Below, one piece after another: positions 29,482 through 50,779 of a DNA stretch of 64,000 nt; position 1 is the stretch's first letter; every line of letters begins with the position of its first letter. The notes under the pieces were generated by a model, which was not told the origin of the DNA, did no database searches, and saw nothing but the letters and a program-made list of their open reading frames with translations. A program made the translations under genes and the position numbers. The stretch lies in the NCBI RefSeq assembly GCF_036785885.1, contig NC_092323.1, positions 19,786,501 through 19,850,500 of the forward strand. The letters run 5' to 3'. The stretch comes from Coffea arabica. Lineage: Eukaryota; Streptophyta; Magnoliopsida; Gentianales; Rubiaceae.

Positions 29482-29813
29482 TGTGCGAAATGTGTGGAAT
29501 GAAGGATGCAAATGATGCACACAGTAGTAGGGAAGTGAATCGCATAGAAATTTTGGGACAAAAAGGCCTTGAACAAGATTTGACAGAGCGGTTATGAGAA
29601 AGTAGGGTTTTGAGGGAAAATTGGGAATTTACGAATTGTTATGCGATTCGATGAAATGATCAGGAGAAATGAATCGCAATCAACCAGGAAAAGTTTTGTT
29701 TGAGTCAATTTGGGAATGAGAGCTTCAGAATGGTATGAATTTGAGAGTGAGAAATGAGAGAGTTTTCGTCCGAGAGGAAATAGAAAAAAAATTTGAAGCA
29801 AATGAGGGAGAAA

Positions 29814-29972
29814 GTTATTTTAAAAAGTGAGCCGTTGCACTGTCGGACGGCCGAACGAAGTCGTGTGTCCGACAGCTTCGTCCGAACAGGTGTTTTCTGG
29901 AAAAAAATAGCTGAAGAACATTATCGGACGTCCGTTCATCTTCTTTCGGATGTCCGAAGACTTTGAAAAATT
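29814..29972 (-). promoter_or_regulatory. Possible internal promoter before the 3' ORF, U3-like
   Basis: Three palindromes of the LTR type (CGGACGGCCG, CGGACGTCCG, CGGATGTCCG) and several half-sites lie between pol and the 3' ORF. On the minus strand they are followed by GTCCGACAGTGCAACGGCT and the TATA-like TTTTTAAAATAAC (29814-29826). LTR-B has GTCCGACAGCCCCAACGGCT in the same position relative to its array. This suggests duplication of a U3 module to drive the 3' ORF. Confidence 0.5.
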
Positions 29973-32900: not shown

Positions 32901-33137
32901 ATTATGAACAAAAGCTTCACTATCCTTACCAACATCACCTATTCCAATTGTCTTAGCTTTCACATCATCACCGAATGTTACCTTTTCACTTGATTTTGAT
33001 TTTAGCTTTATGAACAAAGAGGGATCACCGGTCATATGCCTTGAGCAGCCACTATCAATAAACCATTTGGACTTGTTTGAGCCTTTTTCCTGAAAAGAGA
33101 AAATGTTTGGTACCCTTTTTAATTTTTGGGTCCACAA
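29973..33137 (-). CDS. Copia pol polyprotein: protease, integrase, RT, RNase H
   Basis: One open frame of 1,054 codons; it has no ATG of its own and would be read from gag. Domains in order: copia protease (WFIDSGCSRHMTGD, active site D-S-G, residues about 25-40); gag-pre-integrase (LWHRRLCHFN … CDAYQFGKQ) and integrase core (LDLFGPTQ, IRSDNGTEFK, PQQNGVVERKN), about 155-400; RT (catalytic YVDDIIFGAT), about 560-810; RNase H (YSDADFGG, STTEAEYIA, CDNTSAI, KHIDIKHHF) at the C-terminus. The copia order (integrase before RT) is clear. Oddities: the second Cys of the integrase zinc site is Tyr (CDAY for CDAC), LGH reads LCH, and FFLGLQI reads FFLRLQI. It would make and integrate cDNA. These substitutions may have crippled it despite the open frame. 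Confidence 0.95.
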   Translation of the reverse strand: MWTQKLKRVPNIFSFQEKGSNKSKWFIDSGCSRHMTGDPSLFIKLKSKSSEKVTFGDDVKAKTIGIGDVGKDSEAFVHNVLLVDNLGYNLLSVSQLCDKDLNVLFKKHECIVLDSKYNVVFKGKRFNDIYIVVLDKIDSSSFKCLKASNEDLWLWHRRLCHFNMDLLKKISKKELVRGLPKICFEKDKICDAYQFGKQTKVSFKPKKCVSTSKPLELLHLDLFGPTQITSLGGKKYCFVIVDDYSRYTWVIFLAHKDDAFKNFTSLFAKVQNLLGLKIVRIRSDNGTEFKYCDFPDFCDHNGITHEFSIARTPQQNGVVERKNRILQEAARTMLSECSLPKYLWVEAVNTACYVMNRILLRPILNKTSYELIFDKKKPTVGYFKVFGCKCFILNLKEHLGKFEKKSDEGIFLGYCENKRGYRVFNRRTLVIEEAIHITFDETNDNNSKRSCEDDDVGVREGMEKLKIGDEEISKPAAMEMMDEAHNDQEKGDEDENDDSVKDLPNAWKFSQNHPRELIIGDPSEKVKTRSSSRKLIDNFALVSLFEPKNINDALKDDNWILAMQEELNQFERNKVWTLVDRPQNQPIIGTKWIFRNKLDDKGVVVRNKARLVAKGYAQEEGIDFDETFAPVARLESIRMLLVFACFKGFKLFQMDVKSAFLNGFIDQEVYVDQPPGFENTKFPSHVFKLSKALYGLKQAPRAWYERLSGFLIENGFKRGIVDTTLFTKQVLNDLLIVQIYVDDIIFGATNEYLCKDFSTTMQSEFEMSMMGELNFFLRLQIHQALEGIFINQAKYTKELLKKFGMEDSKQVGTPMCTSTKFDKDEEGNHVDEKHYRGMIGSLLYLTASRPDIMFAVCLCARFQSCPKESHLNAVKRIFRYLKGTLDYGLWYARSCEFALYGYSDADFGGCRVDRKSTSETCHFFGNCLVSWFSKKQNAISLSTTEAEYIAASACCAQLLWMKHTLNDFGLLYDCMPIFCDNTSAINLTKNPIQHSRTKHIDIKHHFIRDLVQKGEICVNYVCSKDQFADTFTKALPLDQFIHLRSKLGIIEKSS

Positions 33138-34822
33138 TAGTTAGCATTGTATCTCACTAACCATATGCATTTCATTCCTTTGTTCAGATTTCTTTTCACA
33201 TAGCAATCTCCTTTCAAATGCCCTTTTTGACAACAAAAATCACACATAATGGAAGAGTCCTTAACATGTACTGGTTTGACATATCTCAATCCATTTCTTC
33301 TATATGTTGTGAAATCATGTGCATTTTTGTTGCGTGCTAATGTTCTTTGATGAGCAGTAAGAAAGGTAGATGACATGTTCTTTTTAAGAAAATCTTGTTT
33401 TCTTGCTTTCAAAGTCTCATCCAAGTTGTCCATTCTTTTCTTCAAATCACCATGTCTTTCCTTCAGCATTTTACAAATATTTGTCCTTCTATCAAGCTCA
33501 TTTTGAACATTAAATCCGGCTCTTACAAGACAATCATTGTCAGTCTTTAGTTGTTTATTTTGTTGAAGAAGACTTGTATTTTCATGAATGAGAAAAGCAA
33601 TTTTCTGTTTTAGCTGCTTGTTTTTATCATAAGATTCCTTCAAGGCATTATGCAGTTTTTCAACAAAGGATTCAAGATCATCATCTTCTTCATCATCACT
33701 TTCAAATTGAGAGTGTATGGAAGTTACCTCATTATCTCCAATAGCCATGAAGGCCATTTGAGCTGATTCTTCCTCTTCTTCAACTTCCCCTTCAGAGTTG
33801 CATTCATTCCAAGTAATTTGGAAGTTGTTGAATCTTGGCTTTCGATCAGCTTTCCCATCTTTCATTTTCTTCATGGGGCATTCGTTTGCATAGAGTCCAG
33901 GCTGTCCACATTCATAGCATTTATCCACTAGCTTCTTGTTGAATTCTTGTTTTCCTTTGTTCCTTGCATTTGATGAATAATTTTGAAATTGATTGCTAGG
34001 TCCTCCCTTTCTAAACTTCCTTTTATTCACGATTCTCTTGAAGCCTCTTGTGATGAGAGCAAGATCATTATCATCACCATCCGAGTCTTCATCATCCAAG
34101 TGAGCTGGATCATCTTCACTTTGAGTAGTCTTTAGAGCAATATTTCTCTTTGCTCTAGCATCCTCTTCCTCCTGCACTTTAGATTTCAGTTTCAACTCAT
34201 AAGAGGTTAGTGAGTTAATGAGAGATTCAATAGGCACAGAATTTAAATCCTTAGCCTCCTCTATTACAGTCACTTTATTTTCTCATTCTTTGCCCAATGC
34301 ATTGAGAATTTTCCTGTTCTTCTCTCCCAAGGTGTACTCTTTGCCCAACATCTCGAAATCTTTGATCAAGTCATTGAACCTGCAATACATTTTGTCAATA
34401 TCCTCAAGAGGTTCAATTTTAAATGATTCATACTTTGTGACCAAGATAGTCTTTTTCTGTTCTCTCACGTTGTCACCACTCTCATGGATTTCTCTTAGCT
34501 TATCCCACATTTCTTTGGCCGATTTACAGCCTTTTACTCTAATTGATTCATTTGAATCTAAGGCACTATAAAGAACATTCATGACTTTGGCATTCAATGT
34601 GAGATTAGTCCTATCTTGAGCATTCATTTCAGCTCTTCTTTTTGGCCGAAGCAACCCTGTATCTGCGTCAAGAAAGTTAGCTTCATGCGGTCCTTCACTC
34701 ACAATAAACCATAGCTCAATATCAATAGATTGCAAAAAGATAATCATCCTTTCTTTCCAGCTAACATAATTGGAGCCACTGAACATGGGAGGTCTAGTAA
34801 CAGATTGCCCCTCAACAAACAT
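33119..34822 (-). pseudogene. Copia gag with one nonsense codon
   Basis: The likely start is the ATG at 34822-34820 (MFVEGQSVTRPPMFSG), since the upstream part of the frame overlaps the primer site. Gag core motifs are YVSWKERMIIFLQS, NALYSALD-like and MWDKLREIHES. A TGA at 34285-34283 interrupts the frame. The related relic at 62 kb has Trp there (S-K-D-W-E-S), so this is a Trp-to-stop mutation. The rest contains a first zinc knuckle in which the His is Leu (CYECGQPGLYANEC), an acidic coiled-coil stretch (residues about 380-470) and an intact second knuckle (CDFCCQKGHLKGDC). Gag ends 19 bp into the pol frame. The relic's sequence at the same point is continuous, so a single-base insertion in an A-run probably broke gag-pol fusion here. 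Confidence 0.85.
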
Positions 34823-34880
34823 AGCATGACTGGTTGTTATCTTTACTCCAAGCCGTTTGAGCTTAATCTCTAGGAGACCA

Positions 34881-34893
34881 AGCTCTGATACCA
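34881..34893 (-). other. Primer-binding site of the SIRE-like element
   Basis: On the minus strand TGGTATCAGAGCT, two bases after the LTR end (TTACA), matches initiator tRNA-Met. Confidence 0.93.
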
Positions 34894-34895
34894 AT

Positions 34896-36101
34896 TGTAA
34901 GGCCCAAAGACAACCTAAGAGGGGGGGTGAACTAGGTTGATTAAAATCTTAATCAAATTTATACAATTTTTGCTTAATAAAAATTTACCTTCTTTTCTAG
35001 TAATGATCAATCAAGTAGATTAGAAGAAGAGAGCAATATTGATTCGAAAAACAAGTATAGATAAGCAATGAGAATTTTATTAAACAAAAAGGAATAAGAT
35101 AGAATATCAAACCGATTGTCTACCAAGCTTTCCTCAAACTTGAAGACCAATCACTAGGTTGAGCAACTTCTCTTTGATGAAAGATGATCAACTAGATGTA
35201 CAATGGAGGGAGCACTTCCTCCTTGCCCTAAGTCTCACTTAGTCAAGCTAAGAAGTTTTACAATCACTCAGATAACCCTCAACAAAGCTACACTAATGAA
35301 ACTTTCAACCACAAGAGAAATGCTCACAAGAAATTCACACCACTTGGAGAACAAATCTAGGTTTGGAGACTATTTTCTAGCTTAAAATATCTCTTGAGAT
35401 CTTGTAAACAAAGTGTGCAAAAGTCCTTATCTGATTCAGAATCGTTTGTATTTAAAGGGAACCAAAAATGGGCTTCATTAATACTTCCAACGGATAGAAG
35501 GCAGATGAAGAGTCAGCTAGCCGTTGGGGCTGTCGGACGTCCGATGGCTTAGTCATCGTCCGATCCCATAGTCCGAAAATCAGTCAAGTTGTTGTTCGGA
35601 CGTCCGATGGGATTTTATCGTCCGAGCTTCTGTGTCCGAACGTTGTCCAGAGAGTTATCAAATCTTCGTGGAATTTTTAGGACGTCCGATGAAATTGATG
35701 TGCGACCGAAGCATGCGTCCGATCCTTCAGGACGTCCGATGCTTCCTTACGAGCGTCCGACAGAGTCTTGGCAGAGAGTCATCAACACTTTGTGGAATTT
35801 TTAGGACGTTCGACACGTTCGATGTGCGTCCGAGGAGTACGTCCGATCCATCCGGACGTCCGATGCTTCCTCACGAGCGTCCGACAGAATCTTCTTCTTA
35901 ATTATCTTCATCCTTTCGGACGTCCGACAGATTCCTTCGGACGTCCGATATGAGTGTCCTGTTTTTGCTTCTTCTTTTGATTGATTTTCATTTCTTGACA
36001 TATTCGTACCTGATTCTTTGATAGGCAAAAAACACTTGTATTTGAAGAGAGTTAGATAAACATTTCAAAGTATTTTGTGATCATCAAAACCAAGAATAAC
36101 A
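34896..36101 (-). repeat. 5' LTR (element orientation) of the SIRE-like copia element
   Basis: About 1,206 bp, partner of 26242-27446. It has the same palindrome array (about 35533-35955) and a TATA-like element at 35448-35456. Its outer end is followed by the TSD GACCT. Confidence 0.93.
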
Positions 36102-36185: not shown

Positions 36186-38480
36186 GATTCTAGGGTTAAA
36201 AAAAAATCATGCAAAAACAAGAAATTCTTCAAATCTATGAAATCAGTTGAAGTTGGAACTTAATTTACATGGAACATTCAGCCACCGCTCCTATTGTAGA
36301 AATAGGTGAAGTAGAATTGAGATACGCCTTTGTGGTTTTTACTAAATAATTTCATAAATCCTAATGAACTTGTAGCTGGATTTATACCATGAAAATAGGT
36401 GTGAATTAGTTATAAGTATGACAGATATGTTGAAGAAAGCTGATATCCTATATATTAGAAAATTGCATCATTACTTAACCTAAGAGATAAAACTCAATCA
36501 TTTGGGTCATTTCACTAGCAGAGGTAAGGACGATAACTAAAACCCTAGGAACTTTAGTTTGTCATTTTCTTTGTCTTTTGTAGTGTAGTTGTATTTAGTC
36601 ACACTTTAAATGTTGATAAGTTGATTAATTTTTCTTGTGAGATCAACACTTAATTTCTCCTTGTACTTATCTATGACTATACACTTATAGAAAGAGAAGT
36701 TTGAGTTTGAATAAAATTTTACATCAGTGGACTTAATTACAATTGGAGTCATCATTGTAATCTTCATAAAATCTAGTCAAATTTTCAGTGACCCTTTGAC
36801 AAAAAGATAATCAAAAACCTTGGTGTATAAGGCATTAAGAGGAGTATGATTAAAGTCCAAAAATATTAATCACTCATAATGGAACGTCAATTCAATACTA
36901 GGTACAACATCTAATCCTAAATTCAATTGGTCAAATACATTCAAGTGATTGTAACACTATGTCAAAGATCATCCCTTGGAAAGATAGTGCAAAGTTGATC
37001 CACTAGAATAAGGGATTGCTGAGTTTAGAACTCTTGAGTATTTTATTAAATGCATGAAATGGCCGGAGCACGAAAGAATTCACCTATACGAATGTAGAAC
37101 TTAGGCAATTCACAAACTTAAGCGTTTGCCTTTGAGACATTCATGAAGAGGATAACGATACAAGGCGTTAAAATGTATCGTTTATGAAACATGCAATGGT
37201 GCATAAAATCTATATGTGATGTATTCATGTAGCTTGTCATATATTTGAGTAGGTCGAAGTTTGTCTACCATTTCTTATGGACTTATCACAAAGAGCTTTA
37301 GCGAAGGTAATATAATCGAAAGACATCATTATTTATGTATATAATTTTTGAAATAAGCTAAGAGCTTAAAATTTTCAAAATTATTGACAATTGCGGGGGG
37401 CTTTAGTATTTTCAATGATTTTTTAATCGGATGCATGCAAGCAAGCTTCATGAAGACATCTGCTTGGCGAGTCCACATGGCCAATGTTTTGTTCATGCGA
37501 ATGAGGTAGTGAACGTCTGCATCATTGAAAAGTTGCGATTTTTGCAGAATTCTTGAGTTTGAACAAAATGAAATATCACTAAAAACGAGAAAACCAATGG
37601 ATTTTAACGAAGAGACTCAAGAATTCAAGTTGCAACCACCAAGATATGTTGCAACTCTTCAATAACAAGTTCCTAAACTCTATATAAAGACCAAATGGGT
37701 CTTGTTCTGTTGCAGAAAACTATTATCTCATATTTAGTTTATTTTGTAGAAAGTGAACTTATTTTTTGTTCTAAACCTTAAGAAACAAGTACAAGTTCTC
37801 TTAAATATTGTTGCTACGTTTTAACCTCAAGGGTATTACTCCTTCTATTACACTAAGCAATAGACAAATATAATCTGAAGTAAAGAAAGTGTATATAATA
37901 TACGATTTCTTTTCAATTTTCTTCTACGTTCCTTTCTTTTTAGTGGGAGGTTTCGAATTTGAAACCGCTCGCTCACACTCCTTCTTCTTGTACCACCCAA
38001 TCCATCTCTCCTCCCTTTTACATTCTTATATATCCAAAAGTCTTTGTTTTTATTTTCTCACAACATCTTCATTTTTTAGTTTTTATGATTTGGTTGGCAT
38101 ATTCAATGTATCTGAACTCTGCAAATGCAAAATTTCTCTGCATGTTAGATCGTATCCAAAATTGGACTTCGAACTATCTATACTTATTTTATGGAAAAAC
38201 ATGGTAGAGCACTAGGGCTATAAGTAAATTAAATAAGTTTTAATACACAAAAGTATATCAATTATCCTTTAGCTTGGCAACAATAAGACAGTGCATTTTA
38301 TAAGCAAGATCTTATGTTTTCCCCATTTTTTTAATGTGAGTTTAATTCCTTATTGCAATGGGGCCCAAGAAAGAACTATCCAGGAATAGTAAGTTCACTT
38401 CTTCTTTTTTTCTTTTTTTGGTTGTCAAAAAGAATACTTTCACAACTATAGGTAGTAAACCAACTCATTTAACTAAATTT
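36186..38480. other. Intergenic, retrotransposon-like relic sequence
   Basis: 36625-36730 is a diverged relative of the 157-bp unit at 4769 (shared GAGATCAACACT and GAAGTTTGAGT). A TATA box in CTCTATATAAAGACC at about 37679 followed by a leader-like stretch suggests an old LTR, but no ends could be fixed. The 108-codon frame at 37889-38215 is Phe/Ser-rich and unrecognised. Confidence 0.4.
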
Positions 38481-38499
38481 ACCCATAGCCGTCCATGAA

Positions 38500-39168
38500 T
38501 AGATGGGTATGGGTATCTTAAATTTTGTATATGGGTATAAATGAGTTATCCATTAAATGGGTATTATTGGGTAACCCATCAAACCCAATTAACTCATTTA
38601 GAATTTTCTTTCCCCAAGTCTCCTCTCTTCCCCCACCTATTTTTCTTTTAAATTTTTTATTTTGTCATGATGTTAACTACTTTTTATTATTATTATTATT
38701 ATTTGTTGGTTTTATCTTATCATTTTATTTTCTCTTAGTTTGTTAACTTGCTCATTTTTCAGCATTACCAATTTATGATAAGTTTTAGCCTCTTTTCTTA
38801 TCTTTCTAAAATGAAATTTTAAATTTATATATGAAAAAAATGTTAGGGGTTCAAAATTTTTGGATTAAATTTTTATATTAACTTTTATAGTACTTAGTTC
38901 AAATTTTTATATTCTTATTATTCAATTATTAAATAATATGTAATTTTGCGACATAGAGTATAGATGGGAAAAAATTGGTAATTAGGCTTATTGAACATTA
39001 TAAGTAAATATTTAAAACGAATAATGGGTGCAAAAAGCAGTATAAATTGATAACTTAGTTTGTAAAAATGAATTTAAATGAGTTTACAAAAATTTAAAAT
39101 AAATGGGTTATAAATGGGTAATTGGGTTACCCAATTCATTTTTTGACTTATCCATTTATACACATCTA
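38500..39168. mobile_element. Possible hAT-like MITE next to the pararetrovirus-like unit
   Basis: The left part TAGATGGGTATGGGTA … GGGTAACCC and the right part, read inward (TAGATGTGTATAAATG … GGGTAACCC), form an imperfect inverted repeat with an AT-rich core containing (TTA)n at about 38683. No TSD was found. Its right end lies only 4 bp from the unit at 39173. Confidence 0.45.
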
Positions 39169-39184
39169 ATATACTTCCCCCTCT

Positions 39185-39197
39185 GGCTCTGATACCA
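39185..39197 (-). other. Primer-binding site, 3' copy
   Basis: TGGTATCAGAGCC on the minus strand. It is followed inward by a GGGGCTAACCCC palindrome at about 39208-39219 that could form a hairpin beside the primer site. Confidence 0.85.
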
Positions 39198-39676
39198 GAC
39201 GGGACGAGGGGTTAGCCCCTTAAACCAGGAACAAGTAAAGAATAGAGGAGGAAAGCATAAAAGTTAGGAAGTTGGTCGCAGCCGGACTGCCACTAGTTAG
39301 TATAGGCGGTTAGACCAGCCATGTATAAACAAAATATAAAGAATATTTAAAGACAAGTTAGAATGTTAGTTCAGGCGGTATAACCAGCCATATATGGTTA
39401 GTATAATCAAAAGAAATAAGAACAAGTAAACGAATATGAATGTAGATGGCTCAGCCAACCATTTGATTGAATATAAGAATTACAGAATGTAAAGAAGACT
39501 TACAAGGATATGAAGCTTCAAGCTCCTTTGTTTGATCTAAAAACTAAAATATAAAAACTAAGAACTTGTTTGTAGAGAGAGGGAGGAGGATTCTTCAAAC
39601 TAGAGAGAGAAGTAGCTTTGAAGAATTGGTGTAAGAATGGTGTAAGAATGGTGTGTGGAATGTGTTGGGTTTGAGG

Positions 39677-39796
39677 GGTATTTATAGCAAAATTTCCGTA
39701 GTGCTACAGTACCCGCTACAGAGTTTTGTTTGTCTTTTGCTGCCGTGCATGCACAGTAACACGCCGGACTGCTACAGTACTTCCGGTGCTACAGTA
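39677..39796 (-). promoter_or_regulatory. Putative pregenomic promoter of the pararetrovirus-like unit
   Basis: On the minus strand GCTATAAATACC (TATA, 39677-39688) is preceded by three exact copies of TACTGTAGCA (39702-39711, 39770-39779, 39787-39796) and a near-copy around 39752. Transcription would run through 39640-39201, the primer site, and in a circular or tandem template into the ORFs at 43953. The CT-rich, AC-rich sequence after the TATA looks like a leader. Confidence 0.6.
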
Positions 39797-39859
39797 AAAC
39801 GATTTTTTCTGAATTTTTGTCCCGATTGAGCCAGCTTGAATATTTCTAGAAGCATTTGT

Positions 39860-40549
39860 TCAGCAAATCATTGCTGATAATTCTTCTAATGCTTCTTTGA
39901 TCCATTGTTTGTAATGTCGTGCATTTACTCCTCGTTTCTCAAGTAAATACTTGTTGAGAACCATTCTTTGTATGTATCTTCTCTGCATGAAGCATTGTTC
40001 CTTCAAAGTTTGTATGGAATAATTTGATTCTCTTACCCCAACGTGATTGTATTTGTGTATATGATAGATCGGAATCCTTTCACCGGTGTCTTGGTTAAAG
40101 AATACACTATCAAAGTTTCTGATTCTGGACACTTTGTGCTCGTTTTCCAAGTAGTGATATTCTGTCCAGAGGCGCGAGAATGCATCATCTCTGAGTTTGA
40201 CTTGGAAGGATTGAGTAATAGTGTCTTCAGGAATTAAAAATGGATTTTCATCCCTTTTCGTTTCCTGAATCCAGTTTATTGTTGAAAGCTCGTCAATTGC
40301 ATGGAATTGATTTGAGATTGTTTCATTGGGCATCCAATTTGAAGTGGATTCCGCAGGCATCCAGTTTGAGGATGATTCCTCAGGGATCCATTCCCAATCA
40401 GCTTGATTCTGATTGGATGATGTTTGGCACTCATTAGTTTGAATGTCGGATATTTCTCCGTGAGAGGTTTGTTGCCAAGTAGAATATCCATCGAAGAGAC
40501 AGTTTTTCTCTTCTGGATTATATGATGATGAACTTCCTTCACCTGCCAT
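39860..40549 (-). CDS. Possible separately spliced 229-aa protein (nested in the protease ORF)
   Basis: On the minus strand CTAAC and CTAAT branch-point-like motifs, a T-rich tract and TTTTTGCAG end four bases before the ATG at 40549-40547. A near-consensus donor CCAG|GTAAGA lies in the leader at 44372/44371. Joining them would remove a 3.8-kb intron with the capsid-like ORF and protease, and put this Met first on the mRNA. Splicing from leader to a downstream ORF is known in caulimovirids such as RTBV. Here it is inferred from sequence only. The protein is acidic at the start and Trp-rich in the middle, with no family recognised. Confidence 0.5.
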   Translation of the reverse strand: MAGEGSSSSYNPEEKNCLFDGYSTWQQTSHGEISDIQTNECQTSSNQNQADWEWIPEESSSNWMPAESTSNWMPNETISNQFHAIDELSTINWIQETKRDENPFLIPEDTITQSFQVKLRDDAFSRLWTEYHYLENEHKVSRIRNFDSVFFNQDTGERIPIYHIHKYNHVGVRESNYSIQTLKEQCFMQRRYIQRMVLNKYLLEKRGVNARHYKQWIKEALEELSAMIC

Positions 40550-40948
40550 GTTTCTGCAAAAAGAATTAGTTAGTTTAAAAAGTTGGGATATTATCTCTTT
40601 ATAGATAATTTGGAAAGGAGCCAGTTGATTGAGAAATGATGCGCCTAAGATGATATGGTTAGTCAAATACTCAGTCAAGAAGAAAGTATCTGAGAATTGG
40701 TTTTGTATTTTTAAAAATTTGAATTCAATATCAAGTATAGGATTTTTGGTCTTTCTAAGGAATTCTAAAAATTGGGTTGGGATAAGGTTTTTAGGAATAT
40801 AGTTTTGGTCTAACCCTGTATCGACTAAGGCTTTTGTTTCGATTACATAATTATCAATAATTAGTAATCGTATACAAATCAAGTCTTCCTGAAATAACTG
40901 AGAATTGTTATTCAGGTTCCAAGGTTTAATTGTTTTTTGTAGGGACAT
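39860..40948 (-). CDS. Aspartic protease ORF with unrelated C-terminal protein
   Basis: 362 aa from a true ATG, 38 bp after the upstream ORF and in a different frame. Residues about 20-125 form a retropepsin-like domain: active site KALVDTGLDQNYIP (D43-T44-G45) and the second signature HIILGASFLNQLAPF. In reverse-transcribing elements RT follows directly. Here, at residue 134, a new Met begins a 229-aa region (MAGEGSSSSYNPEE, repeated NWMP/SNWMPxE units, then FFNQDTGERIPIYHIHKYN and a basic, helix-like end with KQWIKEALEEL). A strong splice acceptor sits just before that Met, so the region may be made separately. Protease would process the capsid-like precursor. The function of the C-terminal part is unknown. 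Confidence 0.75.
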   Translation of the reverse strand: MSLQKTIKPWNLNNNSQLFQEDLICIRLLIIDNYVIETKALVDTGLDQNYIPKNLIPTQFLEFLRKTKNPILDIEFKFLKIQNQFSDTFFLTEYLTNHIILGASFLNQLAPFQIIYKEIISQLFKLTNSFCRNMAGEGSSSSYNPEEKNCLFDGYSTWQQTSHGEISDIQTNECQTSSNQNQADWEWIPEESSSNWMPAESTSNWMPNETISNQFHAIDELSTINWIQETKRDENPFLIPEDTITQSFQVKLRDDAFSRLWTEYHYLENEHKVSRIRNFDSVFFNQDTGERIPIYHIHKYNHVGVRESNYSIQTLKEQCFMQRRYIQRMVLNKYLLEKRGVNARHYKQWIKEALEELSAMIC

Positions 40949-40986
40949 AGGTTGAATAAGAAATCTGTCAAGAATTTCCTGGAAAC

Positions 40987-43953
40987 CTAAGTTTTTGGTT
41001 TACAAGAATTTTGTCTAGGAATTTTTTCTGGAATGTCAAAGAAAAGATTCGAAATTTGGTTCGAGTATGGTTGTCTTATTTCAAGAATATCTTCAATGAT
41101 GCTGAAAAGAAGGTTATGATTTTTGGTTATCATATATCCTTCTTTTTCATCTTCATCACTGTTTGGGAAAGAAGATGTTGAAATGTATTTGTCATAATCT
41201 TCCTTTCGTTCAGATTTGAAACTATCTGATTCGATTAGAAGATTTGACAATTGGGCTGCTAGTCTTAAAATATTGAATTTTTGGAAATGTTGGCTTGTGT
41301 ATTTGAATAGATGGGTTTTGAAAATGGATAAGGCTAGCTGTTTTGTAGAAGGAAAAAGGGTTTTGAAACCCATAGGTTGGGGTTGTTTATTGGGCCTTGT
41401 ATGGTAATTCAATGGCCCAAACTGTTTGTAAAAAGATCCAAGATTTCTTCCTTGGGACTGATCTTCCGTCGGATTGGGAAACCAGTCAGCTTGTTGGTTC
41501 TGTTCACCAGTTGTTTCTTTCCAGGACTTAATCTTCTTGTATTGGATTTCAAGAAGGCCTTTGAAGAAATCTTTGTTGTGAACTTTGTCTCTGTCTGATT
41601 TCATCAAGAATATGTATTGATATCTTCTGGAGCTTGGGAATAGTTTTGATGAATCCCCTTGGACAACTCCAGAATCATCATCAGAATTGATATTGAATAA
41701 CATTGTTTCTGGCAGGATGTTCCCATCTTGTAGATCAGATTCATCCCTGTTGGTTGTGACTAGAATATCGTGAATAATATTTTTGTCTTCAATGATGAGA
41801 TGTTCTTCCCACCATCTTTTGGATTGCCCAATAAATCCTATGAATAGGACATGAGCAATTAGTTGATTGCAGCCATGTAATGTTTGATTAAACATAGCTG
41901 TAGTTGTCATCTGTTGAGATGTCATAGGAGGATTGCATCTGATCATTTCATCTATGCTCCATTCATAGATGTCTTCCTTATTGTATGAATGTTGAAGGAT
42001 ATTAGACTTTATTCTGAAAGTATCAGAATGAATCATTTGAGGGTGGTATAGTTTTTGGGTGTTTTTTCGGTTGAAAGTATAATTTTTTAAAAAAGGGTTT
42101 GAATATGATTTATTCAGGGTAGAAGACCCTTGGAAGTTTTGTATGGTATTGATCAAAGAAGTTCTTCGAATTTCGAACTCTTGTTTGGGTAAAGGAATTG
42201 GAAAGTATTGTTCAATCCAAAGTTTTTGGTCTTCTAAAGGTTTGAAAAGTAAGTTTGAGAAATAGGTTTTTGGAGTAGGAGTTTTTGGGATGAATTGGGT
42301 AAAAAGTTTGAAAAGGTATTTTTCTGGATAGATTGTAAGAATCTTCTTGGCATGGATATAGGATGCTTTTTGGTCAATCCTGATTTCAATTTCATGAATG
42401 ACCAATTTTGTTGAAGCAGATTCTGCCTGAATCTCTTGTTTGGTGACTGATTTGTTCGGAGAAGATCTTGTCTGAGTTTTTTCCCCGATGCGTCTATTTT
42501 TCCACCGGATGTGTCTGATAGCTTGCCATTTATTTCTTGTTTGAATAGAAGGATGATCAATTCTATTCTTCCAAGAATATAAAGGCTGGATGTATTTCTT
42601 CTTGAATTTCTGGATTTTCTGACTCCATTTGCTGGATCTGATAGATCTTAGAATATTGATTCGAGATCTTGCCAGATTTGTCAGATTTGATTTTCCAGAT
42701 ACTCCTTGTATATGAGGTTGTCCCTTTAATTTGTTGAAGATCCATGTCTCCTTAGTTTGTCCCTTGTATTTGCTGGATAACCATGTTTCCTCTGTACATG
42801 ATTCCACCTTGAGGTTTGGGTACTCGATATTAAGTACCTTTAGCTTATCAAGCTGCAACTGTTTGTAAGTTATGAAAGAATATATAGAAAATTTAGGAAT
42901 TTTCCCCTGATTATTGTTTGCAGGAATTTCTTTTAAATTTTTTTGAGAAATATGTTCATTATCGGAAGGGATATTAAAATCACGGAATAAGTTTGAAATA
43001 AATATTTGTAAAGAATTTTGAATTATATCCTTAGTTGACTGGATTTCAACTAACTGGTCTTCTTGTTTAAAAGAAATAATATTTGTTGGTAAATTTCTAA
43101 TAACTATTGTTTTGGAGGAATCACTATTTGTTTGAACATTTCTATCAGATATAGGTTTGATACTAGGTTGAGTTTTAGACAAGACATTTATTGAGGAATA
43201 TCCTAGAACTAAGGAATTTCCTATGTCTTTCTTAACATCAAAACTAGAGGTATTGACAGAATTAACTATAGTTTGACAAGAAACAAAAAGTTTTGTAATT
43301 TCAGTAGACTCTTGGTTTGGTAAATCTACTGGGTTTGATAGATCTTCGGGAGAATCTGGTAGATCTATATCTATTGGGTTTGATTTTGATGGATCTATGG
43401 ATTCTGAGAGTTTATGAGAGGATTGTAGTGTCTGGGTTGTTTGAAACAGATCTATGGATAGATCTAAAGGTTTTTGTGTAGAATCTGTTTGAGATAGATC
43501 TATGACTTTTGGCTTAGTTTGAATTGGATTTACGGGATCTAAAGTAGAACCCTGAGGTTTTGACATAGAGGATGCAGGTTTTGAAATGTTTTGAACTGGA
43601 TTTTTGAGTTCTGGTGCAAACTCTTTAGTTGTTTGAGACTCATACCAGTCAAAGAAATGAATATTTTGTTTTGTTTTTGTTAAAAAGTCATAAAAGTTTT
43701 CTTGAATATTTTTTCGGGCTTCTCCCTTATATTTGTCAAAAAATTGTTTTCTTTTAAAATGGTTGTGGTTTGCAAAGAATTCAGATCTAATGTGTTGTTC
43801 ATTAATCTGGAATTCAGAATGGTTGTTTTCTAGTTTTCTTTGTATAAGAATTGACTGCTCAATTTGAGCAATTCTAGTTTGAAGTTTATTCAAAGATTTA
43901 TTGTTTGAAGAAGAACTAGAATTTATGAAATATGCTTTAACTGGAGAAGTCAT
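40987..43953 (-). CDS. Capsid/gag-like large ORF of the pararetrovirus-like unit
   Basis: 988 aa from the first ATG (MTSPVKAYF). The open frame extends 12 codons further upstream, but without an ATG. Residues 25-50 may form a short coiled coil (NKLQTRIAQIEQSI). Residues about 110-260 are Ser/Pro/Asp-rich with repeats of D-L-P/D-P-S type. A very basic Trp-containing segment lies near 440-500 (KWSQKIQKFKKKY, RHIRWKNRR), possibly nucleic-acid binding. Residues about 660-725 (W-S-I-D-E-M … HGCNQLIAHVLFIGFIGQ-x-K-R-WW) resemble the capsid domain of plant Gag-like polyproteins, whose core usually reads GFxGQLxGWW. I see no CCHC knuckle and no clear movement-protein signature. The frame is uninterrupted, unlike most old pararetroviral inserts. 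Confidence 0.65.
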   Translation of the reverse strand: MTSPVKAYFINSSSSSNNKSLNKLQTRIAQIEQSILIQRKLENNHSEFQINEQHIRSEFFANHNHFKRKQFFDKYKGEARKNIQENFYDFLTKTKQNIHFFDWYESQTTKEFAPELKNPVQNISKPASSMSKPQGSTLDPVNPIQTKPKVIDLSQTDSTQKPLDLSIDLFQTTQTLQSSHKLSESIDPSKSNPIDIDLPDSPEDLSNPVDLPNQESTEITKLFVSCQTIVNSVNTSSFDVKKDIGNSLVLGYSSINVLSKTQPSIKPISDRNVQTNSDSSKTIVIRNLPTNIISFKQEDQLVEIQSTKDIIQNSLQIFISNLFRDFNIPSDNEHISQKNLKEIPANNNQGKIPKFSIYSFITYKQLQLDKLKVLNIEYPNLKVESCTEETWLSSKYKGQTKETWIFNKLKGQPHIQGVSGKSNLTNLARSRINILRSIRSSKWSQKIQKFKKKYIQPLYSWKNRIDHPSIQTRNKWQAIRHIRWKNRRIGEKTQTRSSPNKSVTKQEIQAESASTKLVIHEIEIRIDQKASYIHAKKILTIYPEKYLFKLFTQFIPKTPTPKTYFSNLLFKPLEDQKLWIEQYFPIPLPKQEFEIRRTSLINTIQNFQGSSTLNKSYSNPFLKNYTFNRKNTQKLYHPQMIHSDTFRIKSNILQHSYNKEDIYEWSIDEMIRCNPPMTSQQMTTTAMFNQTLHGCNQLIAHVLFIGFIGQSKRWWEEHLIIEDKNIIHDILVTTNRDESDLQDGNILPETMLFNINSDDDSGVVQGDSSKLFPSSRRYQYIFLMKSDRDKVHNKDFFKGLLEIQYKKIKSWKETTGEQNQQADWFPNPTEDQSQGRNLGSFYKQFGPLNYHTRPNKQPQPMGFKTLFPSTKQLALSIFKTHLFKYTSQHFQKFNILRLAAQLSNLLIESDSFKSERKEDYDKYISTSSFPNSDEDEKEGYMITKNHNLLFSIIEDILEIRQPYSNQISNLFFDIPEKIPRQNSCKPKT

Positions 43954-44098
43954 TTGAAAATTAAAACAAGAAAATAAATAAACAAACACTTAAATGATTT
44001 TGAAGACTTATAATCCTCTTCCCTTTGGCACAGAATCCTTCGGGATCCATGGAGGATAAACCATTTTTCTTAATCAGATTATAAAGGATAGTGTGAAA

Positions 44099-44640
44099 CC
44101 TACAAGAAAAGATCTAGCCTTTTGAAAAGAATTAACTATGCATGACGACCATATTTCCATCATATTAAAGATAGTAAAAATAAACCTACGAGAAAAGATC
44201 TAAATCTTTTGAGAAAGATTAACTATACATGACGACCATATTTCCAAACAAAATCATAAGATTGATAGTAAAAACCCATTTTCCCTGGATCTGATCTTGT
44301 GACACTTCCCCGTCTTGGAGTACGTCCCAAGAACCTCAACGCCCCTACAGAGCCAAATCCCATGGTCTTACCTGGACCGGACGTTGGCACTTACTGGATC
44401 CATGTCATTCAATCAGATCCAAAGTCATGAAATCAGAACTATCAAAATTATAACAAGCTTGAATATATTAGATGGTAATCACGAAGTTAACCAGTCTCAT
44501 CTAATAAGATCTAAACTTGTAGATCTACACTATCAGTAGCATAAATAAAAAAGATGGTAATCACGAAGTTAATAAATTTCATCAGGAAGATATAAACTTG
44601 TAGATCTACACTACCAACATCATAATAAGTAAAGAAAGAT
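44099..44640 (-). repeat. Leader with two separate tandem duplications
   Basis: One pair (44099 and 44185, period 86) shares GAAAAGATCTA…ATTAACTAT…CATGACGACCATATTTCC. A second pair (44471 and 44553, period 82) shares GATGGTAATCACGAAGTTAA and AACTTGTAGATCTACACTA. Both lie in the untranslated leader between primer site and the large ORF. Duplicated leader blocks can hold RNA structure or packaging signals, but nothing shows that here. Confidence 0.8.
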
Positions 44641-44664
44641 AGCCATCTCCCCACTTCCCCCTCT

Positions 44665-44677
44665 GGCTCTGATACCA
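44665..44677 (-). other. Primer-binding site, 5' copy
   Basis: TGGTATCAGAGCC on the minus strand, same 29-bp context as at 39173-39201. Confidence 0.85.
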
Positions 44678-44681
44678 GACG

Positions 44682-47027
44682 TGTAATTACATGGGTATAA
44701 ATGGATTGACTCACTTATACTCATTACCCATTTTACCCAACCCAAAACCGCCCAAATCACCCATTTTGACACCTCTATTCACAACTTACCAGCTTTCCTC
44801 GTCTTCGTTATACATTGAGGGGTGGTACAATCTAAGGCTCAATTGAGGTTGTGGTAACTTATTAAAAACTATTTGACCTAATGCAGTTTTTAACCTAATG
44901 CAGTTTTTAATAAAAACACTTATTAAGTACTTAAGTGCTTTTAAATATAGCATTTAGTTATATAGTTCAATAAATATTTATTATATTGAATAATGTGTAA
45001 TTTGAATATTCTTAAATGTATTTATCTCTTTATTTAGTTCATAATAAAGGATGAAATAATTAAATTTAATGTGTTATTTTTTAAAACATAAAAGCTATTT
45101 TAAAAGTATCAAATTTTAGTTTTTGTTAAAAGTGCTTTTAGCACAAAAACTTCCATTTCTAATTTTATGGAATAATGTCTACCAAACGCCTCACAAGTAC
45201 TTTTAACACTTAAAAATGCATATTTACTAAAAACACCACAACCCCAAACAAGCCCTAAGTTTGTTTCTATCCTAACGAAGCCTTCAAGAAAGAATACAAC
45301 TAAAGTCAACTTCTATCTACAGTACTTTTGTATGTGCCAAAGATTAAGTATTGGAAAATCTAGTTGTTAGCAAAAACAAACTACAATGGAACTGAAAGAG
45401 CATTAGTTGAGAGAATTTTACACTGAATCCATAATTTCCACTTTCTACATGCTTCAAAGAATCTTGAGTGAAATATAAGCCAACAAAAATGAGATTTAGA
45501 CACCATGGTTTTTTTTTTTTTTTTTTTTTTTTTGTCCAATATCACATATAAAGCACTATTTAGCTCATTACAGTACCGGAGCAGGGAGAATTTTCAAATG
45601 GGGCACTAACAGAATTTTTTTTTTTTTTTTTTTTTTTTTGGGGTTAAACAAGGGCTCTACAACAGTGCCGAATTTGAAAATACAGAAATTTTCTCACCAT
45701 TTGCCACATGAGCTCTCACTATTATGAAATATCAATTATGCCCTTATGAAAGACTAATTTTACATTTTGGGTACTCATCCCTTGGCTTTCGATACCAATC
45801 TCTTTAATTTTCGGTACAATCAATACTACTCTGCAGTATCTCTAATTCTTGGTGTCTTAACCCTGAGTACTAGGCCAAAACAAAAGGTTTCGTCGATCGG
45901 CAAATAATTACGAAGATGAGAGACTGCAAGAAATGCACAGAAATTGATCAAAATAAGAACTTTTTTATGAACTGATGCATCAATGGATAAAACTCCTTCA
46001 AGCATTGAGTTTTTTTTACTTGTACTCATCATTAAAGTGATATCTATATCTATAGCTTGTATTCTTTACAAATAATTGTTATCAAGTTACTTACATGCAA
46101 CTGTGTATCAAATTTATTGCAATTACTAAGTGTAAAATTACTTGCTCGTTGCACAGTGCAATTCGTAGTGCAGATCTAGCCTCAACTTGATCTGGCCTTC
46201 ATTTCGAATCCTTAATTTTCTTTATTTTCGAAATTGAAAGCTTAGATCTGGACCACATTAGCTCGACTTGATTTGAACCGCGAACAATTCTCTGCAGTAG
46301 CACTGGCAATTGTGGAGAAACCTTGTCCATGATAGTTATGAGTTTTCGGTACGTCTGTATTTAATTGCAAAACAAACCTCCTAGTTGAAAAATTAATTCA
46401 GCCATCATATTAGGAGGCTTCTTTTATTCATTGTGGAAGTGTTAAGAAATTAGAGTTGACAAGAACGGTTGCACTAAACAGCGTATTTAATTTTTTTTGT
46501 ATAGTTTACAAAAAAAAAAAAATTTTATATTCCATTATCATAGTTAGCTGATTAATATTTGACAAATTGACGAATCATACTTTTGAATTCTATATCATTT
46601 TTTAAATTTTGGACCACGGACACCCATGTACAGGTGGCCTGTACCATTATTGAGCAAGTCAAAATCCCATAACATTAACATCAATAGCCTAACGAATTAG
46701 TTATGATGTCACTTCATTTCCACCATTCAAGACGTGTTAAATGGAAAGTACCAATTAGCGCAATGAGTAGCTGGATGCAGTAATTGAAGCTGTCATGACA
46801 TTTGATTTAGATCTTTCATTCTTTTTTTTTTTTATGGTAACGATAATATTTTTATAATCTACACTATCCTATTATAAGGGGGAAGGAGAGCCTAACCGAT
46901 GGAAAATAACATCAGAGGAAACTACTAAAAGTGACAAGTCACATGTAGTGATAAGTTTTTTTTAATAAGAAGTAAGATTTGAACCATTAACCTTCAATTC
47001 CTGCCAATCCCAAATGGCCGTTGGCAG
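44682..47027. other. Intergenic; hAT-like end and homopolymers
   Basis: 44685-44785 reads inward (minus strand) as a hAT-type end (GAGGTGTCAAAATGGGT … GGGTTGGG … CCATTTATACCCAT) and is similar in inverted orientation to the sequence left of 39173. Long T runs lie at about 45511-45533 and 45617-45639. No gene recognised. Confidence 0.4.
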
Positions 47028-50000
47028 ATCTCCATTCATGATCCGTTAAAATGTTACTTTCAGCGTCAGAAGAAAATCAACTCCAACCAATAATAATAAA
47101 GAAAGATCCTTAGTCATGGTGCAGCATCCAATGTATCATTAGTAATCTATAAGAAAAATACAGAGAAGGACCATCTACATGTGACATTTTTCAATTGTGT
47201 GGAAGGTTTCGTTTATACCCCCTTATGATCAAGTATTAATGAGCCCACGGCCATCAATTTTTCTCCTTTTCTTTTCTTGGGCCATATATTTTCTGCCTTT
47301 TCTTTTTTTTTTTTTTGGTGTTTTTGGGAGGGGGGGGGGTGTCTATGGCTTCCAAAAAGGAAAATTAAAACCTAAAATCGATTTCAATTAGCTCTTAAAA
47401 TCTATTTAGGACAATGGAGAAATACATTGGTGGAACCATAGGTTGCGATTTGGGAGAGAGTGGGGCAAGACTAGTGAAGATGCATACTTAAGGACTTTTA
47501 TATTTTTGAAAAAATACTTGAAGGGTGATATAAAATTCATTTATCTTGCTTTTCCGTGTCGTAGCCTGTGAGTGCCCAGGCTGTATGCCAATACGAGTAT
47601 CCAGGTGTCAAATCTTACAGAGAAGATTAATTATGCACCAATGTTTATCAAACCCCTTTATTAATCAAATTACGAACTGTCACAAAATTTAATAAAACAA
47701 ATGATACTAGCAATAACAATTAGAATCAAATAATGCAAAAAATTGTCAAAAGAAACTATTATTAGGGTTTAGATTTTTGTAATTATCCTGGTCAAAAACT
47801 TATTTTGGTTAATCAATTTACTCTTGTGCAAAACCATGACGAACCTCTTAATGTCATAAACCCTCTTTAGCCAATGTATTATCTATATCAAAAACAAAAT
47901 TTAGTCTACTTTCGTGATTTGAAGCTAATTAAAGACTCATTAGGATCTTGAGATTATACAAATCATCCTTTAAGTACTTCCCTACTTTCGTGAGATACAA
48001 TTAAAAGTTTATGTCTGTGACAACAACTATTAATCAATAACAATTGTCTATCAATTAACAACTTATATGCTTTACCATTAAGGACCCTTTTAATTGTAAA
48101 GATGAAAACAAAGACATAAAAAAGCCCACATTAGATTCACCAATCAATCGAGATAAATCATATATGTCAAGATAGATCACACACACAATATATATATATA
48201 CACTCACACACACACATTATATATACATAAATATACATAATACATATATACATACAAACACAAAATATGTATGTATACATATACATAAATATAATTATTT
48301 ATTCATTTACTTATGTATATGTTTGTGTTTATACATGTGTCGTGATATTTGATTTAGATCCTCCATTCATGATCTGTTAAAATGTTACTTTCAGTATCAG
48401 AAGAAAATCATCTTGTACCAATAATAATGAGGAAAGATCCTTGGCAATATGCATCCTTAGTACTTTAGAAGAAAACTACATAGAAGGACCATCGATGAGT
48501 GACATTTTTCAATTGTATGAAAGGTCACGAAACTTCAATTTTATACCCCTTATAATCAAGCATTAATGAGAGCATGGCCATCAATTTTTTTTCCTTTTCC
48601 TTTCTTGGGCCATTCCTTTTCTTTTCTTTCTTTTTTCCTTTTGGTGTTAGGGGGGGGGGGGGGGGGGGGTTCTGTGGCCATCTTCTTCTGAAAAAAAGAC
48701 AATTAAAACCTAAAATAGATTACAATTAGCTCTTAAAATCTATTTGGGACGTTAGAGAAATATATTGGTGGAACCACAGGTTGGGATTTGGGAGAAAGTG
48801 GGGCAAGACTAGTGAAGATGCATACATGAGGAGTTACTTTTATATTTTTGTAAAAATACTTGAAGGGTGATGTAAAATTCATTAATCTTGCTTTTCCGTG
48901 CTGTAGCCTGTAAGTGCACAGGCTGTATGCTAATACAAGGTGTACCAGGTGTCAAATCTTACGAGAAGATTAATCAAGTACCAATATTTATCGAACTCCT
49001 TTATTAATCAAATTACGAACTGTCATAAAATTTAAGAAAACAAATAATACTAGCAATAACGATTAAAATCAAATAATGCAAAAATTGTCAAAAGAAACTA
49101 TTATTAGGTTTTAGATGTTCGTAATTATCCTAGTCAAAAACTTATTTTGGTTAATCAATTTACTCTTTTGCAAAACCATGACGAACCTCTTAATGTCATA
49201 TACCCTCTTTAGCCAATGTATTATCTATATCGAAAACAAAAATTAGTCTACTTTCGTGATTTGAACCTAATTAAAGACTCACTAGGATCTTGAAATTATA
49301 CAAATCATCCTTTAAGTACTTCCCTCATGAGATACAATTAAAAGTTTATGTCTCTACCAACAACTATTAGTCAACAACAATTGTCTATCAATTAACACCT
49401 TAAATGCTTTACCACTAAGGACCCTTTTAATTGTAAAGATGAAAGCAAAGACATAAAATAGCACACATTAGACTCACTAGTAAATCGAGATAAATCATAT
49501 ATGTCAAGATAGATCACACACACAATACACACACACAAAATATGTGTGTATATATACATAAATATATACATCCCATATAGATACATACATACACACATAC
49601 AAACACAAAATATGTATATATACATGTATATTATTTATTTATTTACTTGTGTATATGTTTGTGTTTATACATGTGTCGTGATATTTGATTTAGATCCTCC
49701 ATTCTTTTTTTTTTTTTTTGCTGACGGAGTGGGTGTCCTCCATTCATTCATTCATTCATTTTTTTTTATTTGTTTTAGATCCTCCATTCATGGTCTGTTA
49801 AAATGTTACTCTCAGTATTAGAAGAAAATCATCTTGTACTTTAGAACGAGGAAAGATCGTTGGCAATAAGCATCATTAGTACTTTAGAAGAAACTACATA
49901 GAAGGACCATCGACAAGTGACATTTTTCAATTGTATGGAAGGTCTCGAAACTACAATTTTATACCCCTTATAATCAAGCATTAATGAGCCCACGGCCATC

Positions 50001-50779
50001 AATTTTTTTCCTTTTCCTTTCTTGGGCCATTTCTTTTCTTTCTTTTCCTTTTTTTTTTTTGGAGTGAGGCCCCGCGGCGGGGGGGGGGGGGGGGGAAAGG
50101 TTGGTATTAAAACCTAAAATAGATTTCAATTAGCTCTTAAAATCTATTTGGGACAATAGAGAAATACACTGGTGGAACCACGGGTTGGGATTTTGGAGAG
50201 AGTGGGCCAAGACTAGTGAAGATGCATACATAAGGGGGTACTTTTATATTTTTGTAAATACTTCAAGGGTAATGTAAAATTCATTAATCTTTCTTCTCCT
50301 TGCTATAGCCTGTAAGTGCACAGGCTATATGCTAATACAAGGAGTATTCAGGTGTCAAATCTTACAGTGAAGATTAATCAAGTATCAATATTTATCAAAC
50401 TTGTTTATTAATCAAATTACAAATTATCACAAAATTTATGAAAACAAATAATACTAGCAATAACGATTAAAATCAAATAATGCAAAATTTGTCAAAAGAA
50501 ACTATTATTAGGGTTTAGATGTTCTTAATTATCCTAGTCTAAAATTTATTTTGGTTAATCAATTTACTCCTGTGCAAAACCATAACCTCTTAATGTCATG
50601 TACCCGCTTTAATCAATGTATTATCTATATCAAAAACAAAAATTAGTCTATTTTCGTGATTTGAACCTAATAAAGACTCATTAGGATCTTGAGATTATAC
50701 AATCATCCTTTAAGTACTTCCCTACTTTCGTGAGCTACAATTAAAAGTTTGTCTTTACCAACAACTATTAATCAACAAC
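47028..50779. repeat. Tandem repeat, 2.7 units of about 1.33-1.42 kb
   Basis: The marker GTTAAAATGTTACT recurs at 47045, 48376 and 49797. Long collinear matches include CAAGACTAGTGAAGATGCATAC, GTCAAATCTTAC and CTTTAAGTACTTCCCT. The third unit stops at 50779. Each unit holds a T-run plus G-run (47325-47339, 48650-48669, 50077-50094). Units 1 and 2 also carry a CA/TA microsatellite (48176-48340, 49510-49680). No coding region was recognised. It may be a tandemly duplicated retrotransposon fragment. Confidence 0.85.

What the first reader, a model, noticed from the sequence alone, without database searches (positions are those of the whole stretch)
39173..44681. Pararetrovirus-like unit bounded by its own primer-binding sites and lacking reverse transcriptase
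Identical 29-bp blocks with the tRNA-Met primer site lie 5,480 bp apart, and the promoter sits inside the 3' end. This is what a circular reverse-transcribed genome opened at its minus-strand origin would look like, not an LTR element. Both ORFs are uninterrupted, yet no RT or RNase H exists in any frame. The unit could be an undescribed satellite-like element replicated in trans by another retroelement.
Basis: partly seen in the sequence, partly recalled or inferred. Interest (0 to 1): 0.75.

Follow-up and report, generated by a model that had tools for sequence, protein, structure and literature searches.

The report
RT-less third component of endogenous pararetrovirus
This plant-genome insert is a fossil copy of a small circular virus component that lacks its own copying enzyme, shares its control regions with two other components of the same virus group, and was probably copied by them, which hints that this kind of virus once had three cooperating or parasitic pieces.

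Summary
A 5,509-bp unit (39173-44681, sense = minus strand) is bounded by identical 29-bp blocks with a tRNA-Met primer site, has a pararetrovirus-type leader and promoter region, and no reverse transcriptase (RT) was found in it. It is not a lone oddity or a copy-level deletion. The same unnamed plant genome holds dozens of copies with the same RT-less junction ('class C'). It also holds two partner classes with the same leader, intergenic region (IGR) and primer site: class A (DUF7588-protease-RT-RNase H plus ORF2) and class B (movement protein, coat protein with zinc knuckle, protease). IGRs of A, B and C interleave on a tree, as expected if exchanged during co-replication. A paralogous empty site and a 4-bp duplication show a clean insertion. 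Two-component and non-autonomous pararetroviruses with homogenised IGRs are published (Geering 2014; Chen 2017). What I did not find in print is a third RT-less, MP-less class with a knuckle-less coat-like region. Its C-terminal protein shows purifying selection (dN/dS 0.28); the coat-like part is not distinguishable from controls. Best reading: a satellite-like or accessory third component replicated in trans by A and packaged by B. The trans steps are inferred.

The parts
39173..44681 (-). Whole inserted unit (class C component), 5,509 bp, opened at the primer-binding site
39173..39201 (-). 3'-terminal 29-bp block with tRNA-Met primer-binding site (TGGTATCAGAGCCA on the minus strand; identified from memory)
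   Evidence: 33 exact copies in the own genome, 0 for the reversed control
44653..44681 (-). 5'-terminal 29-bp block, identical
43954..44652 (-). Long 5' leader after the PBS: with the 29-bp block 728 nt, 20 ATGs, one long hairpin (z -8.5 against 20 shuffles); one class A and one class B leader fold alike
40987..43953 (-). ORF1, 988 aa
43111..43953 (-). ORF1a (aa 1-281), module shared with class A (73-82% aa in three class A loci), contains DUF7588 (43627-43797)
42097..43110 (-). ORF1b (aa 282-619), no Pfam match; 28-29% aa similarity to a stretch of class B
40987..42096 (-). ORF1c (aa 620-988), diverged coat-protein-like region with DUF7746 (41767-41985); 32-33% aa to class B over the longest alignments, up to 48% over short ones; no CCHC knuckle
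40553..40948 (-). Aspartic-protease-like N-terminal part of ORF2 (VDTG kept; Pfam RVP E 0.01, below cut-off)
39860..40552 (-). C-terminal part of ORF2 (230 aa; internal ATG at 40549); last ~75 aa match a stretch after RT/RNase H in a related family; dN/dS 0.28
39202..39859 (-). Intergenic region with TATA-type sequence (39680-39686), shared with classes A and B
39167..39170 (.). Left copy of 4-bp target duplication TAAT, followed by 2 extra bases
44684..44687 (.). Right copy of TAAT, preceded by 2 extra bases

Best explanation
The unit is an integrated copy of a ~5.5-kb circular, RT-less and MP-less component ('class C') of a multi-component plant pararetrovirus (Caulimoviridae-like). Proposed mechanism: the IGR promoter makes a terminally redundant RNA; tRNA-Met primes at the PBS; RT/RNase H from class A copies it in trans; coat protein from class B packages it and class B MP moves it. 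Template switching between co-packaged RNAs homogenises the leader and IGR among A, B and C. A circle, open at the minus-strand discontinuity in the PBS, was captured at a chromosome break, which gives PBS-to-PBS ends with a short terminal redundancy and a 4-bp duplication. Class C contributes at least one protein that looks conserved (the C-terminal part of ORF2), so it is satellite-like or accessory rather than pure junk. Shown: anatomy, family, partner classes, shared regions, insertion. Inferred: circularity, trans-replication, packaging, template switching, the protein's role.
For: The RT-less layout recurs: of the 49 best protease hits (of 156), 38 have the C-terminal part within 400 nt downstream, 31 of them directly abutting; 2 of 49 have class A RT within 3 kb downstream, both with the C-terminal part in between. 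Class A partners: 16 of 91 RT hits at 88% identity or more; L045 pieces match DUF7588, RVP, RVT_1 and RNase H; leader plus ORF1a 88-92% nt to the window in L044-L046. Class B (L041): MP, DUF7588, DUF7746, Caulimovirus coat domain, RVP, CCHC pattern. IGR tree of 33 distinct IGRs (17 C, 12 B, 4 A): classes interleave, six starred mixed groups, one-clade constraints rejected (AU p 1.6e-29 A, 3e-72 B, 2.6e-4 C). 6 of 16 class A loci have a class C piece within 8 kb and 3 of 16 a class B MP. C-terminal protein dN/dS 0.28 (0.20-0.38; 16 copies) against 0.72 and 1.03 in wrong frames. Best PDB match of class A RT is an 'Enzymatic polyprotein' (8r0s, E 4.7e-105), ahead of the Ty3-G polyprotein (7q5b, 1.4e-67). 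Empty site.
Against: Every copy is a fossil; no episome, RNA or particle was seen. Three of the mixed IGR groups join loci only 10-50 kb apart, so conversion inside arrays or joint capture could contribute, and the class labels cluster more than shuffled labels (10 changes against 13.3; as low in 4 of 200 shuffles). 8 of 16 class A loci have neither B nor C within 8 kb. Class C coat-like part (dN/dS 0.56; wrong frames 0.71, 0.61), its tail (0.64; 0.70, 0.49) and ORF1a (0.53; 0.55, 0.89) are not clearly different from controls. Against the closest copy, L040, the C-terminal ratio is 1.17, from six changes. A plus B already looks nearly complete, so nothing requires C. Only 4 class A IGRs entered the tree.
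Confidence: 0.75

Rival explanations
1. Class C is a needed third segment of a genuinely tripartite pararetrovirus: its zinc-knuckle-less coat-like protein and C-terminal protein do a job that A and B lack. (A narrower form of the best explanation.)
For: C-terminal protein about as constrained as class B's extension (0.28 in both); ORF1b 0.45 against wrong frames 0.71 and 0.69, four copies only; long open frames, such as 1,384 codons in L040; ends shared with both partners; the post-RNase H tail of the related family matches class C directly, but not the class A or class B sequences tested at E 0.01 or better.
Against: A and B carry MP, coat, protease, RT, RNase H and ORF2, that is, the parts tested in the related single-frame family, and B's extension resembles class C's. 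The coat-like part of C is under weak or no detectable constraint, against 0.08 for class A RT-RNase H and 0.23 for class B knuckle-to-protease.
Confidence: 0.2
2. Class C is a defective-interfering or parasitic derivative with no useful product, kept only because its control regions are copied by the helper. (Also trans-replicated, but without a functional protein.)
For: MP, RT/RNase H and the CCHC pattern not found; ORF1a and ORF1c not clearly different from wrong-frame controls; shared leader and IGR.
Against: C-terminal protein dN/dS 0.28 with interval 0.20-0.38.
Confidence: 0.3
3. Copies multiplied mainly in the chromosome, by segmental duplication and conversion in arrays, rather than by viral replication.
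For: Clusters on C2, C4, C8 and C12 and four equal-scoring copies on C11.
Against: The window copy is a single insertion absent from two paralogous segments; the 62 C-terminal hits used lie on many contigs at 71-100% amino-acid identity. Flanks of the other copies were not compared.
Confidence: 0.12
4. LTR retrotransposon relic: a one-LTR circle opened at the PBS.
For: A PBS next to a promoter region also fits a one-LTR circle.
Against: The only exact direct repeat spanning the unit in 37000-47000 is the 29-bp block; class B carries MP and a Caulimovirus coat domain; long ATG-rich leader hairpin; RT nearest to an 'Enzymatic polyprotein' in the PDB. Integrase is not among the Pfam hits of the class A pieces scanned.
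Confidence: 0.03

Closest known systems
Bipartite endogenous florendoviruses, components A and B (Geering et al. 2014, PMC4241990)
   Same: 5.5-6.9 kb units numbered from the tRNA-Met site, a component without RT, C-terminal extension after the protease, near-identical intergenic regions, compound insertions (passages and section 7 read).
   Different: Component B there keeps MP and coat protein, like class B here. Class C is a further RT-less class in which neither MP nor the CCHC pattern was found. The class B and C extensions tested show no similarity to class A ORF2, unlike the published pair.
Non-autonomous pararetroviruses of grasses: eRTBVL2, ePVCVL, ePVCVL2 (Chen, Zheng and Kishima 2017, PMC5491270)
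   Same: RT-less fossils in many copies, IGRs mixed between partners on trees, exchange by recombination; one partner in sorghum and switchgrass lacks MP and has a coat-like region without zinc finger (sections 6, 8, 9 and part 1 of 10 read).
   Different: In the sections read the partnerships are pairs; here three classes share the control regions. Their zinc-finger-less coat-like region sits in the RT-bearing partner; here it sits in an RT-less unit. The SFKTE string is absent from the five C, B and A sequences checked (class A ORF2, not its ORF1).
Related family with long single frames in the same genome
   Same: A stretch of the MP-DUF7588 frame (24%), coat-protease (33%), RT 68-70% to class A, ORF2 37% to class A ORF2, post-RNase H tail 32% to class C.
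   Different: Seems monopartite: the coat-protease piece sampled (one array unit) is open throughout 1,200 codons and adjoins an RT hit in a 1,793-aa open frame. No DNA similarity of our unit to the 2.4-kb piece downstream of its RT, which may not hold its whole IGR.

Membership tests
Caulimoviridae (as a component) | tRNA-Met primer-binding site marking the start of the circular genome | tested here: met
   (site recognised from memory; circularity not shown)
Caulimoviridae (as a component) | RT with RNase H | tested here: not met
   Not found in the unit; present in class A partners
Caulimoviridae (as a component) | 30K movement protein and coat protein with zinc knuckle | tested here: not met
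   No MP match and no CCHC pattern in the unit; coat-like homology only; both present in class B L041
Caulimoviridae (as a component) | Long structured leader with many short upstream ORFs | tested here: met
   z -8.5 against 20 shuffles, 20 ATGs
Caulimoviridae (as a component) | Circular double-stranded DNA in virions | not testable with these tools
   Genome sequence only
Florendovirus genus | RT phylogeny inside the florendovirus clade | not tested
   No named caulimovirid reference set was used; the viral-contig scan gave no relative
Bipartite component B (Geering 2014) | MP, coat and protease in one frame, RT missing, C-terminal extension | tested here: not met
   No MP match in the unit; class B L041 has MP, coat and protease domains
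Non-autonomous pararetrovirus (Chen 2017) | RT-less unit in many copies | tested here: met
Non-autonomous pararetrovirus (Chen 2017) | IGR shared and exchanged with an RT-bearing partner | tested here: met
   exchange read from the tree, no formal recombination test
LTR retrotransposon | Paired LTRs with TG..CA ends | tested here: not met
   ends at the PBS blocks

The most novel reading that the evidence does not exclude
A tripartite reverse-transcribing virus genome: three ~5.5-kb circles with one common control region, one for replication (A), one for movement and capsid (B), and one (C) whose knuckle-less coat homologue and conserved C-terminal protein act on the host or on particles.
Probability: 0.3. 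Interest if true: 0.72.

Novelty: new variant of a known kind. Interest (0 to 1): 0.5.

Why it matters
Two-component fossil pararetroviruses are known, but the rows listed by my literature searches and the passages I read show no third component class. Three classes with interleaved control regions in one genome, beside a related family with long single frames, make genome splitting and satellite origin in reverse-transcribing viruses testable from sequence: order of gene loss, exchange of control regions, and which proteins stayed under selection.

Tried and rejected
LTR element: rejected. Copy-level RT deletion of class A: rejected, because class C has its own ORF1b, coat-like region, protease (40-42% to class A) and C-terminal protein, and the layout recurs. 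Copy-level deletion of the related single-frame family: not favoured (33% coat-protease identity between it and class B, 28% between it and class C ORF1c). Structure of the C-terminal protein: single-sequence model has mean pLDDT 38, not used. Protein database: no hit for ORF1 residues 560-980 or 1-619; IMG/VR none for class A RT; phage collection none. IQ-TREE codon runs gave me no omega, so counts by the NG86 method were used. A 3'-splice-site-like stretch (40554-40573) before the internal ATG at 40549 keeps its final AG in 12 of 14 other class C copies, but no donor was tested, so nothing is claimed. Genus placement was not achieved.

Not every site is an end: of the first 8 of 33 exact 29-mer sites fetched (L001-L008), 4 (L002, L003, L005, L006) have IGR on one side and leader on the other, as in head-to-tail copies; 3 (L001, L004, L007) have leader without adjoining IGR; L008 has IGR and a displaced leader piece.

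Full report
Observation. The unit 39173-44681 is bounded by identical 29-bp blocks that hold a tRNA-Met primer site (recognised from memory as the plant pararetrovirus type). Sense is the minus strand: PBS, a ~700-nt leader, ORF1 (988 aa), ORF2 (362 aa), intergenic region (IGR) with a TATA-type sequence, PBS again. Pfam gives DUF7588 and DUF7746 in ORF1 (E 2.7e-14 and 1e-9) and a sub-threshold retroviral-type protease in ORF2 (E 0.01). The leader (728 nt with the block) folds into one long hairpin, z -8.5 against 20 shuffles, and contains 20 ATGs. One class A and one class B leader fold alike (z -9.6 and -8.8).

Insertion. The flanks belong to a repeated element. Joined flanks match 40 places (40 of 1,531 candidates scored). 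In the 12 of 40 fetched the unit is missing and the site reads through a single TAAT, whereas the window has TAAT on both sides plus two extra bases at each junction. Two of them (L047, L048) are paralogous segments, about 97% identical over 1.65 kb on the left and 95% over 1.15 kb on the right. This is a clean insertion with a 4-bp duplication. That the ends reflect a circle opened at the minus-strand discontinuity is inference from pararetrovirus biology. Of 8 exact 29-mer sites sampled elsewhere, 4 are internal to head-to-tail copies, so ends at the PBS are common but not universal.

Family. The 29-mer occurs at 33 exact sites in the own genome, none for the reversed control. Searches with the IGR, C-terminal part, protease, RT, MP and ORF1b gave 49, 151, 156, 91, 92 and 134 matches. 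These are lower bounds, since 40 of 299, 150 of 793, 150 of 833, 91 of 20,814, 80 of 1,721 and 119 of 228 candidates were scored. Three classes share PBS, leader and IGR. Class C (the window type) recurs with the same protease to C-terminal junction. For this count I used the best-listed 49 of 156 protease, 62 of 151 C-terminal, 46 of 92 MP hits and the 16 of 91 RT hits at 88% or more: 38 of 49 protease hits have the C-terminal part within 400 nt (a lower bound, as the C-terminal list was cut), and 0 of 62 C-terminal hits have class A RT within 2.5 kb upstream. Class A (L044-L046) has DUF7588, protease, RT, RNase H and a separate ORF2, in one long frame in L045 and in broken frames in L044 and L046. 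Class B (L041 and others) has MP, DUF7588, DUF7746, a Caulimovirus coat domain, a CCHC pattern and protease; in L041 no room for RT is left before the IGR. Two of 16 class A RT hits have an MP within 6.5 kb upstream on the same strand, both with an exact PBS block in between. The leader of a class B unit beside a class C unit (L040) is 98.4% identical to the window's over 622 bp.

Class C is not class A with RT cut out. It shares leader and ORF1a with class A (88-92% nt), but its coat-like region is 32-33% identical to class B over the longest alignments and up to 48% over short ones, its protease 40-42% to A and 44-47% to B, and its C-terminal part 34-38% to the class B extension. The CCHC pattern of class B is absent in class C. 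The last ~75 residues match (32%, E 4e-6) a stretch after RT/RNase H in a related family whose RT is 68-70% identical to class A (75 of 91 RT hits) and whose sampled coat-protease piece is open throughout and adjoins RT in a long frame. That tail matches class C directly; the class A and class B sequences tested gave no match better than E 0.01, and class B is linked to it only through class C. So class C, and probably class B, look like a full polyprotein that lost its RT/RNase H long ago; class C has also lost MP.

Exchange of control regions. Of 45 IGR rows of at least 440 nt, 12 duplicates of the same place were dropped; 33 remained (17 C, 12 B, 4 A). On the tree the classes interleave: 10 changes (minimum 2; shuffled mean 13.3, as low in 4 of 200 shuffles), six starred mixed groups (one of two C, one B and one A at 100/100), 10 of 30 inner branches starred, and rejection of each class as one clade. 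The labels are thus mixed but not random. Three starred mixed groups join loci 10-50 kb apart, so joint capture of partners or conversion within arrays may contribute. Six of 16 class A loci have a class C piece within 8 kb, 3 of 16 a class B MP, 8 of 16 neither; about 0.0008 per locus is expected for randomly placed C-terminal hits, a naive figure because such copies cluster.

Selection. NG86-type counts with codon bootstrap and wrong-frame controls (16 copies for the ORF2 parts, 4 for ORF1a-c, 15 for the ORF1c tail): C-terminal part 0.28 (0.20-0.38; controls 0.72, 1.03); protease 0.52 (0.37-0.74; 0.69, 0.79); ORF1a 0.53 (0.42-0.68; 0.55, 0.89); ORF1b 0.45 (0.33-0.62; 0.71, 0.69); ORF1c 0.56 (0.44-0.77; 0.71, 0.61); ORF1c tail 0.64 (0.46-0.98; 0.70, 0.49). 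For comparison: class A RT-RNase H 0.08 and ORF2 0.19 (3 copies), class B knuckle-to-protease 0.23 and extension 0.28 (11 copies; for the extension one wrong frame gives 0.46, the upper end of its interval). Against L040 alone the C-terminal ratio is 1.17 from six changes and ORF1 gives 0.54. Constraint on class C is clear only for the C-terminal part and suggestive for ORF1b. Decay after integration dilutes all values.

Kinship. Class A RT matches a PDB chain called 'Enzymatic polyprotein' best (8r0s, E 4.7e-105; that this is the cauliflower mosaic virus enzyme is recalled), ahead of the Ty3-G polyprotein (7q5b, 1.4e-67). Of 2,273 database hits, 120 are listed, and 6 of these bear the name 'Enzymatic polyprotein' (from Cucumis melo and Cajanus cajan). 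No hit was found for class C ORF1 in that database, whose sensitivity is limited.

Literature. Geering 2014 (PMC4241990; passages and section 7) describes bipartite florendoviruses. Chen 2017 (PMC5491270; outline, passages, sections 6, 8, 9 and part 1 of 10) describes non-autonomous grass pararetroviruses with concerted IGR evolution. A review (PMC10377300, passages), the CAULIFINDER paper (PMC9719215, passages) and a 2026 survey (PMC13308828, abstract and passages) mention no third component in what I saw. The rows listed by searches (20, 15, 12, 10 and 10 rows) show none by title or start of abstract; most subscription papers are not held.

Verdict. The new part is a third RT-less class.

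Noticed in passing
26267-35893: Copia-like LTR element with 96-99% identical direct repeats 8,655 bp apart, and an extra 488-aa ORF (28015-29481) between pol and the end.
   Followed up: no
47030-50674: Three tandem copies of a ~1.33-1.42-kb repeat.
   Followed up: no
140-3518: Ty3/Gypsy-type pol fragments: protease, RT, integrase and chromodomain-like ORFs judged by eye from the translations.
   Followed up: no
L059, L060 and G000:C22:45597540-45696497: Related pararetrovirus family in tandem arrays, with many RT hits 7,592 bp apart and repeated 1,793-aa open frames.
   Followed up: partly
40554-40573: A CTAACTAATTCTTTTTGCAG stretch just before the internal ATG (40549) looks like a 3' splice site; its final AG is kept in 12 of 14 other class C copies.
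   Followed up: partly
38500-39172 and 44682-44790: The target is a repeated element with subterminal inverted repeats, hAT-MITE-like by eye, in many copies.
   Followed up: partly
G000:C11:60118233-60676107: Four equal-scoring class C copies in 0.56 Mb, possibly a recent segmental duplication or an assembly effect.
   Followed up: no
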